Origin: a virus
Length of the DNA stretch: 64,000 nt
IMG/VR virus record: IMGVR_UViG_3300042090_001530
Location: 124,001 to 188,000 of that record
Strand: one strand, 5' to 3'
Position numbers and translations under genes: made by a program
Shown here: one piece after another, positions 5,146 to 64,000 of the stretch
Layout of the letters: every line of letters begins with the position of its first letter
Position numbering within the stretch: the stretch's first letter is position 1
The notes under the pieces: generated by a model
Database searches by the model: none
Told to the model about the DNA's origin: nothing
What the model saw: only the letters and a program-made list of their open reading frames with translations

Positions 5146-5383
5146 GGACGACCTGCACCCGGCGATCGAGGACTGGTTCGCCCAGCGCCTCGAATTCATG
5201 CCCTGCGACGACGACCTTGAGATGCACGACGCTCTCGTGATGGCCGCGCACGCGATCTCCGCGTCGATCAACGCGCATCCAACGCTGGCGAACGTGAAGG
5301 CGATCGCGGCGGCGTTGGGTATCGGTGACGACGACGGGCGCGTCATCGAGGGCGCGACTGTGCGGAAGGGGATCGAGGGCTGA
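5138..5383 (+). CDS. Hypothetical helical protein
   Basis: 81 aa. The GTG at 5138 overlaps the previous stop and is preceded by GGGAAGGAG about 8 bases upstream. It is acidic and helical, with the segment AISASINAHPTLANVKAIAAALGIG, which recalls the same IGIxxxD tail motif seen in several minus-strand genes here. No known domain. Confidence 0.65.
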   Translation: MHEDDLHPAIEDWFAQRLEFMPCDDDLEMHDALVMAAHAISASINAHPTLANVKAIAAALGIGDDDGRVIEGATVRKGIEG

Positions 5384-5544
5384 TGGGGAGCCATCACGAG
5401 CCGTCGCTGTACTCGTCGCGCCGCTACGGCTGCTGGGCGACGTGCGAGTGCGGGCGCTGGCACTCGAAGCGGTGGACGACGACGATCGGGGCGCACATCG
5501 AGTTCGGCGATCATCTGCTGAGGGAGCACCGTGGAACCGAGTGA
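5383..5544 (+). CDS. Small Cys/His protein
   Basis: 53 aa. The ATG overlaps the previous stop (TGATG), and the stop lies inside the next gene. It contains CWATCECGRWH and a late HLLREH, a plausible C2H2-like zinc site. Very short, but the tight coupling on both sides supports it. Confidence 0.6.
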   Translation: MGSHHEPSLYSSRRYGCWATCECGRWHSKRWTTTIGAHIEFGDHLLREHRGTE

Positions 5545-24198: not shown

Positions 24199-24933
24199 GT
24201 GGCCAAGCTGTGCCAGATCGTCGCCGTCGAGAAGTCGGTGAAGTCCAAGTCGTTCGCGGACCTCACCGAAGCGCATCACGCGTTGCAGAAGCCCGCGCTG
24301 CTCGCCGGGATCTCCCGCACCTACCAGCCCAAGGACGAGGAAGGCGACACGTTCCCGCCCGAGTCCACGAAGGTCCAGGTGCGCGCCGAGGACGTGATCG
24401 AACGCACCGCGGCGAACCTCACCCGGCTGTTCGACGTGACCGCAACGAAGGAGTGGGCGAACTGCACGGCCCGGGCGGACGTGAAGCTCCCGGACGGCAC
24501 GGTGCTCGTGCACCAGGCGCCGGTCACGTACCTGCTGTTCCTGGAGAAGCAACTGGTCGACCTGGCGACGTTCGTGAAGAAGCTGCCGGTGCTCGACGCG
24601 GCCGAGTCGTGGGAGCACGACCCTGCGTCCAACGCGTGGCGCACCCCCGCGGTGCAGACGAACCGGTCGAAGAAGGTCTACCGCAACCACATCAAGGCCG
24701 AAGCCACCGATAAGCACCCGGCTCAGGTCGAGACGTACACCGAAGACGTGACCGCCGGGCACTGGACGACCACGAAGTTCTCCGGCGCCCTGCCGGCGAC
24801 GCGGGTTAAGGAGCTCGCCGAGCGGGTGGAGACGCTGCACCACGCCGTGAAGTTCGCGCGCGAGGAGGCCAACGGGGCCGAGGTGACGGATCGTCTGGTC
24901 GGCGAGGCCGTGTTCGGTTACCTGTTCGCGTGA
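24199..24933 (+). CDS. DUF7873-like conserved actinobacterial protein
   Basis: 244 aa from GTG. The sequence MAKLCQIVAVEKSVKSKS, QKPALLAGISRTYQPKDEEGD and the end REEANGAEV..VFGYLF match a well-conserved Streptomyces and actinophage family that I recall as DUF7873. No enzymatic motif is visible and its biochemical role is unknown to me. It stands immediately upstream (9 bases) of the tandem tRNA-like RNAs and in the same direction, which may be functional rather than chance. Confidence 0.75.
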   Translation: MAKLCQIVAVEKSVKSKSFADLTEAHHALQKPALLAGISRTYQPKDEEGDTFPPESTKVQVRAEDVIERTAANLTRLFDVTATKEWANCTARADVKLPDGTVLVHQAPVTYLLFLEKQLVDLATFVKKLPVLDAAESWEHDPASNAWRTPAVQTNRSKKVYRNHIKAEATDKHPAQVETYTEDVTAGHWTTTKFSGALPATRVKELAERVETLHHAVKFAREEANGAEVTDRLVGEAVFGYLFA

Positions 24934-24941
24934 TGGTCTAG

Positions 24942-25116
24942 GATCTGCTGCGAGCGCAGGTTGAGGCTAAGGCTGAAACTGACGGATCGCTCGACGAGGT
25001 TGCAGGTTCGAGTCCTGCTCTGCGCACTCCGGGCGCAGATGGCCCAATTGGTAGAGGCGCGTCGGGTTCCACCCAGGTTGAGGCTCTCGCTCCAGGCTCG
25101 CGTATCGCAGTCGATC
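24942..25116 (+). ncRNA. Permuted tRNA-like RNA 1 (YrlA-type Y RNA candidate)
   Basis: The order is 3' half then 5' half of a tRNA. The 3' half has an anticodon-stem strand CGACG (24992-24996), variable AGGTT, T arm GCAGG-TTCGAGT-CCTGC (25002-25018) and acceptor TCTGCGC (25019-25025). After a 7-nt loop the 5' half follows: acceptor GCGCAGA (25033-25039), D arm with GG loop (25042-25058) and CGTCG (25060-25064). Acceptor pairing is 7/7 and the CGTCG/CGACG stem 5/5. No proper anticodon loop can be formed. The flanks pair: CTGCGA (24948-24953) with TCGCAG (25105-25110) and, past a mismatch, GATC with GATC (25113-25116). An acceptor closed by a loop plus an anticodon stem opening into a 5'/3' end helix is how YrlA Y RNAs mimic tRNA. 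Confidence 0.7.
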
Positions 25117-25249
25117 GCCCGATCGAATGGATTGCCGCTGAGACCGCCAGGTTGTTGGTTCGATCCCAACGCGAGGCTCTTCGTGCCTCGCTAGCTCAAT
25201 CGGCAGAGCAGGCGCTTCAAGGTGACGGTGTTCCTTAAACGTCGCGGGT
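25117..25249 (+). ncRNA. Permuted tRNA-like RNA 2 (YrlA-type Y RNA candidate)
   Basis: Second copy of the same design. The 3' half has CGCC, variable AGGTT, T arm GTTGG-TTCGATC-CCAAC (25154-25170) and acceptor GCGAGGC (25171-25177). A 7-nt loop TCTTCGT follows, then the 5' half: GCCTCGC (25185-25191), D arm GCTC-AATCGGCA-GAGC (25194-25209) and GGCG (25211-25214). Acceptor pairing is 7/7, the D stem 4/4, the next stem four pairs. The ends pair as GCCCG (25117-25121) with CGGGT (25245-25249) and CGA with TCG (25242-25244) around a 2-nt bulge; a bulged end helix is the Ro60-binding feature of Y RNAs. An alternative 7-bp hairpin at 25111-25126 overlaps the 5' end and could be a processing site. 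Confidence 0.68.
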
Positions 25250-25389
25250 GTGACAAATGGCTGTCAACTGACTCGATATCAGTGATTGGGACCCTCGGGA
25301 TGGATATGGCCCGGGGGTTCCGCCATGTCCGGGCAACCGTCGCCGGACAGGCTCGGACACCACCGGACAGCGCCCCGTACGCTGTTCGC

Positions 25390-26279: not shown

Positions 26280-27425
26280 TCAGGCCTTGACGATCGCCCC
26301 CCAGTGCCCGCGGCTGAGCCGGATCGTGCCGTCGAGCCCGACGGTCGCGTTCGCACCGTACAGCGGCAGGCGCCCTTCGATCAGCCACCTCTTCTTGAGC
26401 CCGTCGAGGCTGCGCCACAGGTCGATCGGGCCACTCACGTGGACCGTAGGGAGTTGCCCGATGGAGCCTTCGGCGCGGGCCCATGAACCTTCCCGATCCC
26501 AGATCAGGCTGATCGCGTAGGTGCCGCGTCGCACCCACCGCGTTTGGATGCCCTGATGCTGGACGGCGAGGTTGGAGTACAACTCCCACGCGTCGTCGAG
26601 GTCGGTCAGCGGGAACACGCCCGCGCGCGCCGACTGGTCGCCGCTGGACTCGAGCATCAGGTCGAGTCGCCGCTTCGAGACTTCCGGCGGATAGGTGTCG
26701 GAGTGGCGTGCGGGCATGAACCCGGCCCAGTCGCGTTCGATACGCCCGAGCAGCGTCCCGTCGGGTTGTCGGTTGGCGGTGAGGATCGCCGTCGTGCCGT
26801 CGAGCACCGTGACGATCCGGCCGCCGGGCCGTAGGGCTTCGATCCACGCGGGCGGGATCGGGCTGACGGCGACGGTCGCGACGATCCGGTCGTACGTGCC
26901 GGGCACGATCCGGGTCGCGTCGCACACCTCGAGGGTGGGCGTCAGGCCGTTTGCCTCGAGGCGTTCACGCGCGGCCTTCACCAGGTACGGGTCTACGTCG
27001 ACCGAGGTGACATGCCTGTCGCCGAGGCGCGTGCACAGCAGGGCGGTGCCGTATCCGGAGCCGGTGCCGACGTCGAGGACGTCCATGCCGTCGACGAGTT
27101 GGCCGTGCCGGTACATCTGGATCAGCAGTCCGGGATGCGTGCTCGACGACGTGGGCCTACCGTCGTCCAGGGTCGTGCCGGGGGCCGCCGCGTCCGCGTG
27201 CATCGTGCCGACGCGGGTGACGAGCGAGACGTCCCGGTATGCGGCATCGACCCATCGGTCTGGGTTCTGCTTGCCGCCGTGGTTGACCCATCCGTCGCCG
27301 CGACGCGCCCACCAGGAGGGCACGTATTCGTGCCGGGGGACCGATGCTAGGGGTTGGCGCCAGCGGGAGACGCCGGGCGTGACGGCGGCGGCCATGTCGG
27401 CGGCGCGCGTTTTCCAGTCGGGCAC
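26280..27425 (-). CDS. Protein-L-isoaspartate methyltransferase-like enzyme
   Basis: 381 aa. An N-terminal PCMT-like approach region (VPRHEYVPSWW), the SAM motif MDVLDVGTGSGYGTALL (about 114-130), an acidic motif II (VTSVDVDPYLVKAARERL) and GTYDRIVATVAVSPIPPAW are those of PCMT and its RiPP-cluster relatives. About 150 extra C-terminal residues after the catalytic fold (ending GTIRLSRGHWGAIVKA) set it apart from housekeeping PCMT (about 220 aa) and are typical of actinobacterial natural-product versions such as the FxLD-system methyltransferases. It methylates Asp or isoAsp carboxylates in that family. The stop of the radical SAM gene lies 4 bases upstream, so the two are one unit. Confidence 0.8.
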   Translation of the reverse strand: MPDWKTRAADMAAAVTPGVSRWRQPLASVPRHEYVPSWWARRGDGWVNHGGKQNPDRWVDAAYRDVSLVTRVGTMHADAAAPGTTLDDGRPTSSSTHPGLLIQMYRHGQLVDGMDVLDVGTGSGYGTALLCTRLGDRHVTSVDVDPYLVKAARERLEANGLTPTLEVCDATRIVPGTYDRIVATVAVSPIPPAWIEALRPGGRIVTVLDGTTAILTANRQPDGTLLGRIERDWAGFMPARHSDTYPPEVSKRRLDLMLESSGDQSARAGVFPLTDLDDAWELYSNLAVQHQGIQTRWVRRGTYAISLIWDREGSWARAEGSIGQLPTVHVSGPIDLWRSLDGLKKRWLIEGRLPLYGANATVGLDGTIRLSRGHWGAIVKA

Positions 27426-62009: not shown

Positions 62010-64000
62010 TCATGCGGCGGTTCGGGCCTTGAGCATCAGGCCCATCACTTCGGCTGCCGCGGCCTGCTCCGAGAACGCGTCGCCCGCGTTCCCGTCCAGC
62101 ACTGCGGCTGTGATCGAACGCTTTCCGGAGACGACCTGCCACATGTACTCGTCCACCGTGCCCTCGGCGAGGAACACCGGGAAGTCGACGGGTCGGGTCT
62201 GGCCGATCCGGTGCATGCGCGCCGCCATCTGCTCGATCTCCGCCCACGTCCACGGCACCTCCGCCATCGCCCCGTGCGCCGCAGCGGTGAGCGTGTGGCC
62301 GACGCCGCCGGCCTGCGTGGAGACTGCGATCACCGGGGCCTTGCGGGCGGGCAGCGACTGGAACGCGGCCTTGTCCGCCTCGACGGACTCGGTGGACTGT
62401 CCGCCCTGGATCCGCAGGCCGGTGAACGTGGCCGCGTAGTGGTCGACGACCGGCCGGTGGTGCGCGGCCACCATGACCTTCTCGCCACGGGCCGTGAGCT
62501 TCTTCACGTGCCGCGTCACGGTGGCGGTCTTGACGTTCCCGACGAGTTGCCGCAGCAGGTTCAGGCGCACCAGCACTTCCGCGGACATGGCCTTGCGGCA
62601 GAACTGGTCGCGGGCGACCGCGTCGGACAGGTCGATGCCGCGCGACTCGGCGAGCTCGATCAGTGCGGCGAGGAAGTCATCCTCCGCACTCCGGTAGGCG
62701 GCCATCGCTTTCGCATTCACGGCGTCCGGGCCGAGCCACTCCGGGCGGATCGTGAGCTGCGGCAGGTTCAGTGCACTGTCGCCGCGGCGCAGGTAGATCC
62801 CGGCCGAGCGCAGCTTCAAGTGCAATTCCTCGAGGTTGGAGGCGCCGTCGAACGTGGTGCCCCACTCGCCCGCCTGCGGGCCGCAGTACCGGTATTTGAA
62901 CGGCCACTCGCCGCCCATGTCCTCCAGGCGCCCGAGGATCCGCAGCTGCTGGAGTAGCTCCTTGGGTCGGTTGACGATCGCCGTGCCCGTCAGGCACAGC
63001 ACGAGTCCGCCGCGGCCGGCGACGTGCGTGCCGAGCGTCTCCATGGCCTGAGAGCGGGCGGCGGCGGCCTCCTTGCCGAAGTGCGACTCGTCCACGATCA
63101 GCGCCTTCGGGTTCAGCTTCACCAGGGCCTTGGCCCATCCGGCGCGGTTGCGCTTCGCGCCGTCCACCGTGGCCTTGTACGTCTCCTTGAGCACATCGAA
63201 CCCGATGACCACGACGTGCGTCCCGGGCGGGACCGGGGTCGGGGCGTTGCCGGAGGCGACGAACACGCGCCGGTCGGGGAAGAACTTCGCGACCTCGGCC
63301 AGCCAGTTCAGCCGCAGCGACGTCTTGCACACGATCACTGCGGGCCAGGCGTCGTCCACTGCGACGGCGGCAAGGGACAGCAGGGTCTTGCCGAGGCCCA
63401 TCTTGTCGCCGATCAGTACCTGTCGGTTCGCGGCGATGAACTCGAGGCCCGCGTGCTGGTGCGGCTTCAACGTGCCCGCGAGGCCCGGAACGGTGATCTC
63501 GCCGCGCCCTGGGGAGAGGGCGATCGATGCGCACAGGTTGTACGCCTCGCGCTCCACGGCCCCGCCGGCAGCCTCACGCACGTCCTGCGCCACGCGCAGC
63601 CCGCGGGCGTCCGCGAGTGCCAGGGCCTCCGGGATCGAGCCCTGGGGGACTGTCCAGGCCCCGGACGGCTTGTCCCAGCGGCGACCGGGGATCGCACGGA
63701 CCTCATCGAGGACGCCGCTACCGGGGTACGTGTCGAAGCGGATCGCGATCGACCCGTCGTCGGTGAACGCGACGTTCGGCTCGGTCGGGGTCTCGGGCAC
63801 GACGGGCGCGGGCGGGTTGTCGGCCAGCTGCTCGACCTCCGGGTCCACGGGGATGCCGTGGGTGCGGGCGAACTCGCGCACCTGCGGCGCGGAGGACGGC
63901 GGGTACAGGTTCACCTTCGACCGGGCGCCGAACTCGGCGCGGTACGCGCGGCCGGGGATCTGCTTGGTGGCCTCGACCATGTCCGGGTCGTACGGGAAGC
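62010..64000 (-). CDS. SNF2/DEAD-box helicase with HARP-like domain (5' end outside window)
   Basis: At least 662 residues; the frame stays open to the window edge (FPYDPDMVEAT before the first Met), so the start is outside. Order: a SMARCAL1/HARP-like N-part (FDTYPGSGVLDEVRAIPGRRWDKPSGAWTVP), motif I GDKMGLGKTLLS, DESH box IVDESHFGK, motif III CLTGTAIVNRP, and in the second RecA half VAVSTQAGGVGHTLTAAAHG and QMAARMHRIGQTRPV (motifs V and VI). This is a complete SF2 helicase or translocase of the type used in phage replication or fork remodelling. First visible gene of the third minus run. Confidence 0.9.
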   Translation of the reverse strand, partial: FPYDPDMVEATKQIPGRAYRAEFGARSKVNLYPPSSAPQVREFARTHGIPVDPEVEQLADNPPAPVVPETPTEPNVAFTDDGSIAIRFDTYPGSGVLDEVRAIPGRRWDKPSGAWTVPQGSIPEALALADARGLRVAQDVREAAGGAVEREAYNLCASIALSPGRGEITVPGLAGTLKPHQHAGLEFIAANRQVLIGDKMGLGKTLLSLAAVAVDDAWPAVIVCKTSLRLNWLAEVAKFFPDRRVFVASGNAPTPVPPGTHVVVIGFDVLKETYKATVDGAKRNRAGWAKALVKLNPKALIVDESHFGKEAAAARSQAMETLGTHVAGRGGLVLCLTGTAIVNRPKELLQQLRILGRLEDMGGEWPFKYRYCGPQAGEWGTTFDGASNLEELHLKLRSAGIYLRRGDSALNLPQLTIRPEWLGPDAVNAKAMAAYRSAEDDFLAALIELAESRGIDLSDAVARDQFCRKAMSAEVLVRLNLLRQLVGNVKTATVTRHVKKLTARGEKVMVAAHHRPVVDHYAATFTGLRIQGGQSTESVEADKAAFQSLPARKAPVIAVSTQAGGVGHTLTAAAHGAMAEVPWTWAEIEQMAARMHRIGQTRPVDFPVFLAEGTVDEYMWQVVSGKRSITAAVLDGNAGDAFSEQAAAAEVMGLMLKARTAA

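What the first reader, a model, noticed from the sequence alone, without database searches (positions are those of the whole stretch)
24942..25249. Two tandem circularly permuted tRNA-like RNAs, probably YrlA-type Y RNAs
Seen: in both RNAs the T arm and 3' acceptor strand come before the 5' acceptor strand and D arm, with perfect 7-bp acceptor matches across a 7-nt loop (25019-25025 with 25033-25039; 25171-25177 with 25185-25191). The first also has a perfect 5-bp anticodon-type stem. No functional anticodon loop exists in either, and outer flanks can form a bulged or mismatched helix. Known: bacterial Y RNAs of the YrlA type bind the Ro60 protein through an end helix and carry a tRNA-mimicking module. 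Such RNAs in tandem on a mobile element are rare, and a true permuted tRNA gene would be even more unusual for bacteria.
Basis: partly seen in the sequence, partly recalled or inferred. Interest (0 to 1): 0.9.

Follow-up and report, generated by a model that had tools for sequence, protein, structure and literature searches.

The report
Tandem tRNA-mimic RNA with DUF7873 gene
A phage carries a conserved noncoding RNA that contains two hairpins imitating transfer RNA with their halves in swapped order, almost always next to a gene of unknown function (DUF7873); it resembles bacterial Y RNAs but lacks their usual partner Ro60, so it may be an undescribed RNA-protein particle shared by many phages and Streptomyces.

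Summary
Both permuted tRNA-like hairpins lie at the stated coordinates. They belong to a conserved RNA of roughly 375 nt just after a DUF7873 gene (24199-24933). The same gene + two-hairpin unit occurs in phages of Gordonia, Arthrobacter, Rhodococcus and Klebsiella (one clear hairpin in Rhizobium and Pseudanabaena phages) and in Streptomyces, Kitasatospora and Actinospica. Counting without requiring acceptor pairing, 112 of 114 hairpins have 7/7 acceptor pairs, with heavy compensatory change. The module is laid out as in YrlA: end helix, T arm, closed acceptor stem, D arm. Two features separate it from Ro60-bound Y RNAs: Ro60 (TROVE) is missing from this record and from most complete phages carrying the unit, and the basal-stem motif of Streptomyces Ro60-linked Y RNAs is in 0 of 150 DUF7873 loci, which have their own conserved motifs. 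Best reading: a YrlA-type tandem tRNA mimic whose partner is DUF7873 rather than Ro60. The RNA structure is shown; the partner is inferred from linkage; the function (tether or decoy) is speculative. A decoding permuted tRNA is unlikely: a long conserved helix replaces the anticodon loop. No expression data exist here.

The parts
24199..24933 (+). DUF7873 gene (PF25283), 244 aa, proposed protein partner
   Evidence: Pfam E 2e-108; AlphaFold2 pLDDT 93.5 with no significant fold match in PDB or BFVD; linked to the RNA in nearly all relatives
24948..24991 (+). 5' strand of element 1 outer mismatched helix (pairs with about 25065-25110)
   Evidence: fold; own partner better than swapped in 43 of 48 relatives
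24992..24996 (+). Element 1 anticodon-like stem, 3' half (CGACG), pairs with 25060-25064 (CGTCG)
   Evidence: sequence; fold
25002..25018 (+). Element 1 T arm
   Evidence: T stem 100% paired in alignment
25019..25025 (+). Element 1 acceptor stem, 3' strand
25026..25032 (+). Acceptor-closing loop ACTCCGG; starts with discriminator-like A and C
   Evidence: relatives: first-element loop starts with A in 75 of 85, NCCA in 33 of 85
25033..25039 (+). Element 1 acceptor stem, 5' strand
25040..25058 (+). Element 1 D arm (tRNA-Leu-like layout: 3-bp stem, 11-nt loop)
   Evidence: sequence; alignments
25060..25110 (+). 3' strand of element 1 anticodon-like stem and outer helix, with conserved CTCTCGCTCCA at 25084-25094
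   Evidence: motif in 98 of 150 DUF7873 loci, 0 of 9 Ro60 loci
25109..25149 (+). 5' strand of element 2 outer helix, with conserved ATCGA at 25122-25126
25154..25170 (+). Element 2 T arm
25171..25177 (+). Element 2 acceptor stem, 3' strand
25178..25184 (+). Element 2 acceptor-closing loop TCTTCGT; second-element loops start with T (20 of 24) or G (4 of 24)
25185..25191 (+). Element 2 acceptor stem, 5' strand
25192..25209 (+). Element 2 D arm (4-bp stem; relatives resemble tRNA-Gly, TAGTTCAA.GGCAGAAC)
25211..25255 (+). 3' strand of element 2 outer helix, with conserved CTTAAACG at 25234-25241
25287..25322 (+). 3' hairpin with conserved GGATA loop, possible RNA 3' end
   Evidence: stem of 5 bp or more with GGATA loop in 40 of 117 relatives against 3.3% of shuffles; stems differ in sequence between relatives but stay paired

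Best explanation
The region encodes a structured noncoding RNA of about 375 nt with two YrlA-type tRNA mimics in tandem. Each mimic is a T arm and D arm around an acceptor stem closed by a loop, standing on a long mismatched basal helix where a tRNA would have its anticodon loop. The RNA most likely forms an RNP with the DUF7873 protein through its conserved basal helices, in the place Ro60 takes in classical Y RNPs, while the tRNA-like faces engage proteins that recognise tRNA elbows and acceptors (tRNA-modifying enzymes, PNPase-type nucleases or tRNA-directed nucleases), as a tether or decoy. Shown: structure, conservation, linkage, distinct basal motifs. Inferred: DUF7873 binding. Speculative: tether or decoy role.
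For: Covariation of acceptor and T stems; outer helices specific to each RNA. Of 152 DUF7873 loci (this one and some near-duplicates included), 123 have the hairpin close to the DUF7873 stop in a strict scan. The profile search adds nearly all the rest: L020 and L021 have none, L040 is cut by the contig end, L049 was recognised by eye. The RNA lies upstream of DUF7873 in L053, and a profile hit lies upstream in L042, so linkage is not a by-product of one fixed gene order. No other neighbour gene is shared by viral and host loci. The unit spans phages of several host phyla. YrlA-like layout. Basal motifs differ from those of Ro60-linked Y RNAs of the same genus. Literature: YrlA has a tRNA-like domain modified by DusA and TruB and tethers Rsr to PNPase (PMC8394870), and it has been suggested to act as a competitive inhibitor of an anticodon nuclease (PMC7790460).
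Against: No expression or binding data. DUF7873 as partner rests on linkage; its fold matches nothing known and its pI is near neutral (mean 6.5), which does not by itself suggest an RNA-binding protein. Most Streptomyces hosts examined also have a TROVE protein, usually with a partial domain match, so Ro60 binding in trans in hosts is not excluded. Some module phages do carry TROVE matches (G012, G013, G014, G017, G457, Rhizobium RHph_TM2_3B).
Confidence: 0.58

Rival explanations
1. Ordinary YrlA Y RNAs that bind Ro60, supplied by the phage or by the host in trans.
For: Same tRNA-like module; YrlA model matches; most Streptomyces hosts examined have TROVE; the conserved CUUAAACG strand of element 2 resembles CUUGAAC in Ro60-linked RNAs.
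Against: TROVE absent from G000 and from the complete phages GodonK, Racecar, Pam2, D517, KpLz-2_45, Fryberger and NiceHouse; Ro60-type basal motif 10/10 in Ro60 loci, 0/150 here.
Confidence: 0.2
2. A permuted, tmRNA-like precursor: RNase P and 3' processing cut inside the acceptor loops, giving a multi-piece RNA with tRNA-like CCA ends that could be aminoacylated.
For: Loops start with a fixed discriminator-like base (A in element 1, T or G in element 2), C at the next position in 97 of 114, and NCCA in 42 of 114. Loop length runs from 4 to 50 nt, and by eye to about 120 nt in L049, which fits an intervening sequence better than a structural loop. Weak match to permuted tmRNA, 19 bits.
Against: The position after C is often T rather than C; Ro60-linked YrlA-like RNA of Streptomyces also has loops such as ACCACGT, so the CCA look is not specific; no tag reading frame was sought or identified.
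Confidence: 0.14
3. True permuted tRNA genes that are circularised and spliced into decoding tRNAs.
For: Permuted order with perfect acceptor stems and an anticodon-like stem, as in archaea and algae (PMC3218864, PMC3978253).
Against: No anticodon loop: a long conserved mismatched helix sits there, and the flanking sequence is conserved outside the tRNA parts.
Confidence: 0.03
4. Degenerate leftovers of tandem tRNA genes, read as a hairpin by accident.
For: Tandem identical tRNA genes do give the same pattern (T arm of one, D arm of the next): many high-scoring matches in other Actinomycetota are such pairs.
Against: The outer tRNA halves are absent and replaced by conserved helices; acceptor stems stay paired across many phages and hosts.
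Confidence: 0.02

Closest known systems
YrlA / bacterial Y RNA (RF02553)
   Same: Basal helix, T arm, closed acceptor stem and D arm in the same order; tandem copies also occur at Streptomyces Ro60 loci
   Different: Linked to DUF7873 instead of Ro60; different conserved basal motifs; acceptor loop up to 50 nt or more; both mimics in one conserved unit with a GGAUA 3' hairpin
Permuted (two-piece) tmRNA (RF04321)
   Same: Acceptor strands in permuted order around a loop that can start with CCA
   Different: Two tRNA-like domains, no tag frame identified, only 19 bits
Circularly permuted tRNA genes of archaea and algae
   Same: 3' half before 5' half with complementary acceptor strands
   Different: No anticodon loop; long conserved helix in its place

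Membership tests
YrlA / bacterial Y RNA | tRNA-like module (T arm, closed acceptor stem, D arm) on a basal helix | tested here: met
YrlA / bacterial Y RNA | Encoded with a Ro60 (TROVE) gene | tested here: not met
   No TROVE in G000; 18 of 22 virus records without TROVE; 7 complete phages without it. A host gene in trans is not excluded.
YrlA / bacterial Y RNA | Basal-stem motif of Ro60-linked Y RNAs (GGUGCG..G with UGAWCUC, derived here from Streptomyces Ro60 loci) | tested here: not met
   10 of 10 Ro60 loci (by construction), 0 of 150 DUF7873 loci
YrlA / bacterial Y RNA | Reaches the Rfam YrlA gathering score (69 bits) | tested here: inconclusive
   28 and 25 bits, but Ro60-linked Streptomyces RNAs also fail with 30-44 bits
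YrlA / bacterial Y RNA | Binds Ro60; carries tRNA-type modifications | not testable with these tools
   needs RNA and protein work
Permuted tRNA gene | Permuted halves with matching acceptor strands | tested here: met
Permuted tRNA gene | Anticodon loop restored after splicing | tested here: not met
   A conserved long helix occupies the position
Permuted tmRNA | Matches the permuted tmRNA model; tag reading frame | tested here: inconclusive
   19.3 bits against 47 in GodonK element 1, no match listed in the window; tag frame not tested
Ordinary tRNA | Detected by tRNA models | tested here: not met
   ARAGORN none; RF00005 24.3 bits against 29

The most novel reading that the evidence does not exclude
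DUF7873 and its RNA form a previously undescribed RNP class, independent of Ro60: a phage- and host-borne particle displaying two different tRNA mimics (Leu-like and Gly-like), possibly cut at the acceptor loops so that real tRNA-like ends are exposed, used to control tRNA-directed enzymes during infection.
Probability: 0.35. Interest if true: 0.9.

Novelty: new variant of a known kind. Interest (0 to 1): 0.74.

Why it matters
Bacterial Y RNAs are known as partners of Ro60. A widespread RNA with the same tRNA-mimic module, its own conserved basal helices and a different linked protein of apparently unmatched fold would show that tRNA mimicry is a module reused with other proteins, and would give DUF7873 a testable role in phages, many of them rich in tRNA genes. 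It also offers a natural set of paired tRNA mimics for asking which tRNA-binding enzymes such RNAs target.

Tried and rejected
Single-sequence folding energy: uninformative. Rfam gathering scan of the window: no match. Ro60 in the phage: absent. Known defence or phage families for DUF7873: no informative match. PDB sequence and fold search: nothing significant. Shared neighbour genes: none beyond DUF7873 and its antisense reading frame (a third large cluster is a loose group of reading frames). Encoded CCA in ordinary tRNA genes of the same loci against NCCA in the loops: too few loci to judge. Searching Actinomycetota with the core model: swamped by tandem identical tRNA genes. An alternative element 1 helix (GAGC with GCUC) pairs in most sequences but would cross the outer helix; left open (the anticodon-stem rows of that script were misplaced and are not used). 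A reading frame running through the window's RNA was dropped because loop lengths differ by non-multiples of three between relatives. Literature: no paper in the library names DUF7873; key Y RNA papers are not held.

Full report
What is there. The window is part of a 202,490-base virus record. At 24199-24933 lies a DUF7873 gene (PF25283, E 2e-108). ARAGORN finds no tRNA in the window; Rfam finds nothing at gathering threshold. Element 1 has a canonical 5-nt variable stretch (AGGTT) and a 5-bp anticodon-like stem.

Is it more than chance. Folding energies are ordinary, so the case must come from relatives. Relatives of DUF7873 were fetched from viral contigs, bacterial genomes, plasmids and phages. 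A scan showed the same hairpin, mostly 58-200 nt after the DUF7873 stop, often followed about 145-150 nt later by a second one. Because that scan required acceptor pairing, I repeated it using only T-arm and D-arm motifs: 112 of 114 hairpins pair 7/7, with 51 distinct fully paired acceptor sequences and three or four Watson-Crick types at each position; shuffled partners pair 7/7 in 13.8%. The alignment of 53 cores gives 99.8% paired cells and a covariation score of 0.745 against 0.182 shuffled and at most 0.165 when slid. The T stem was a selection criterion (4 of 5 pairs) and so counts less than the acceptor stem.

Extent of the RNA. An alignment of 31 loci with both elements and separate alignments of each show conserved sequence outside the tRNA parts: in element 1 GCTGA..CTGA on the 5' side and YTMTYGCTCYA on the 3' side; in element 2 ATCGA on the 5' side and CTTAAACG on the 3' side. 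Both outer helices fit their own partner better than swapped ones. A hairpin with a GGATA loop and a 5-13 bp stem whose sequence differs between relatives lies downstream in 40 of 117 loci against 3.3% of shuffles; in the window it is 25287-25322. In L053 the complete RNA lies upstream of DUF7873 and ends in a similar hairpin followed by a T run. Whether both elements are one transcript or two is not known.

Linkage to DUF7873. A strict scan finds the RNA next to DUF7873 in 123 of 152 loci (the count of 124 of 153 printed there counts this locus twice, as L004 and as the window; some loci are near-duplicates). The core model recovers nearly all the rest. Exceptions are L020 and L021 (none found) and L040 (cut by the contig end); L049 has long loops and was recognised by eye. 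In the phage's own record the model, which was trained partly on this locus, hits only these two places. No other neighbour gene is shared between viral and host loci. The unit occurs in named phages of Gordonia, Arthrobacter and Rhodococcus and Klebsiella, with one clear hairpin in Rhizobium and Pseudanabaena phages, often inside tRNA gene clusters. DUF7873 was found in 6 of 396 Actinomycetota genomes sampled, so in bacteria it is patchy.

The protein. AlphaFold2 gives a confident model (pLDDT 93.5, pTM 0.70) with no significant match among solved structures or viral models and no informative sequence match. TROVE proteins are not among the matches. Its mean pI is 6.5.

Relation to Y RNAs. 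The Rfam YrlA model matches element 2 of the window over its full length (28 bits) and element 1 over the tRNA-like module (25 bits), and GodonK element 2 over its full length at 38 bits, below the gathering score of 69. That shortfall is not decisive: Ro60 loci of Streptomyces carry YrlA-like RNAs that score only 30-44 bits. Reading those loci shows up to three Y RNAs per locus, two of them with tRNA modules in several loci. They share a bipartite basal motif (GGTGCG..G with TGAWCTC), found in 10 of 10 Ro60 loci and in 0 of 150 DUF7873 loci, while the element 1 motif is in 98 of 150 DUF7873 loci and 0 of 9 Ro60 loci. The bipartite motif was derived from these Ro60 loci, so the 10 of 10 is by construction; the 0 of 150 is the informative number. 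TROVE is absent from G000, from 18 of 22 virus records, and from seven complete phages with DUF7873 (GodonK, Racecar, Pam2, D517, KpLz-2_45, Fryberger, NiceHouse); for D517 the RNA itself is only a weak match (23 bits). Several other phages do carry TROVE. So the module is like a YrlA tRNA mimic in layout, but membership in the Ro60-bound Y RNAs fails two tested criteria.

How it may work. Established for YrlA (PMC8394870): the tRNA-like domain is modified by DusA and TruB and binds PNPase, and the basal stem holds Rsr. It has been suggested that the YrlA tRNA-like domain could inhibit an anticodon nuclease (PMC7790460). By analogy, the conserved basal helices here would hold DUF7873 and the two mimics would present tRNA-like surfaces. 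The two differ consistently: element 1 has a D arm laid out as in tRNA-Leu (literally TGGCGGAATTGGTAGACGC in several phages) and A at the discriminator position; element 2 has a D arm like tRNA-Gly and T or G there (the tRNA-type comparison rests on general knowledge of tRNA sequences). This suggests two targets or two tRNA classes, but that is inference.

Alternatives. The loop between the acceptor strands starts with a fixed base and C, often NCCA, and can reach 50 nt or more, so processing to expose tRNA-like ends remains possible; a 7-nt loop ACCACGT also occurs in Ro60-linked YrlA-like RNA, so this is not specific. A decoding permuted tRNA is unlikely. Tandem identical tRNA genes produce the same local pattern; this is a trap for genome scans and a plausible origin of the module.

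Limits. No RNA or protein experiment was possible; DUF7873 binding rests on linkage; the literature library lacks the key Y RNA papers, so novelty is judged from what could be searched (no paper names DUF7873).

Noticed in passing
L160, L162, L159, L161, L188: Streptomyces Ro60 (TROVE) loci carry two to three Y RNAs in tandem, including one without a tRNA module; the Rfam YrlA model misses them all at its gathering score.
   Followed up: partly
L184, L185, L189, L190 and many Actinomycetota genomes: Tandem identical tRNA genes mimic a permuted tRNA (T arm of the first with D arm of the second), a source of false matches and a possible origin of the module.
   Followed up: yes
L001 5297-5825: GodonK has a tmRNA match (RF00023, 90 bits) that its record does not annotate; the annotated tRNA-His at 5376-5437 lies inside it.
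   Followed up: no
L053 3500-4010 and L042 3681-3745: In L053 the two-hairpin RNA lies upstream of DUF7873 instead of downstream; in L042 a core-model hit also lies upstream.
   Followed up: partly
L020 and L021: DUF7873 without a recognisable RNA nearby.
   Followed up: partly
window 24957-24968 and 25074-25085: 12-nt direct repeat CAGGTTGAGGCT flanking element 1.
   Followed up: no
window 26280-27425 (-) and 62010-63980 (-): A methyltransferase (PCMT-like) and an SNF2-type helicase; nine other large reading frames tested had no Pfam match.
   Followed up: no
G000:C1:10711-10782 (L003): The only ordinary tRNA found in the virus record (59.7 bits), unlike relatives with large tRNA clusters.
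   Followed up: no
Deinobacterium chartae (control genome): The only one of 14 control genomes with DUF7873 is also the only one with TROVE.
   Followed up: no
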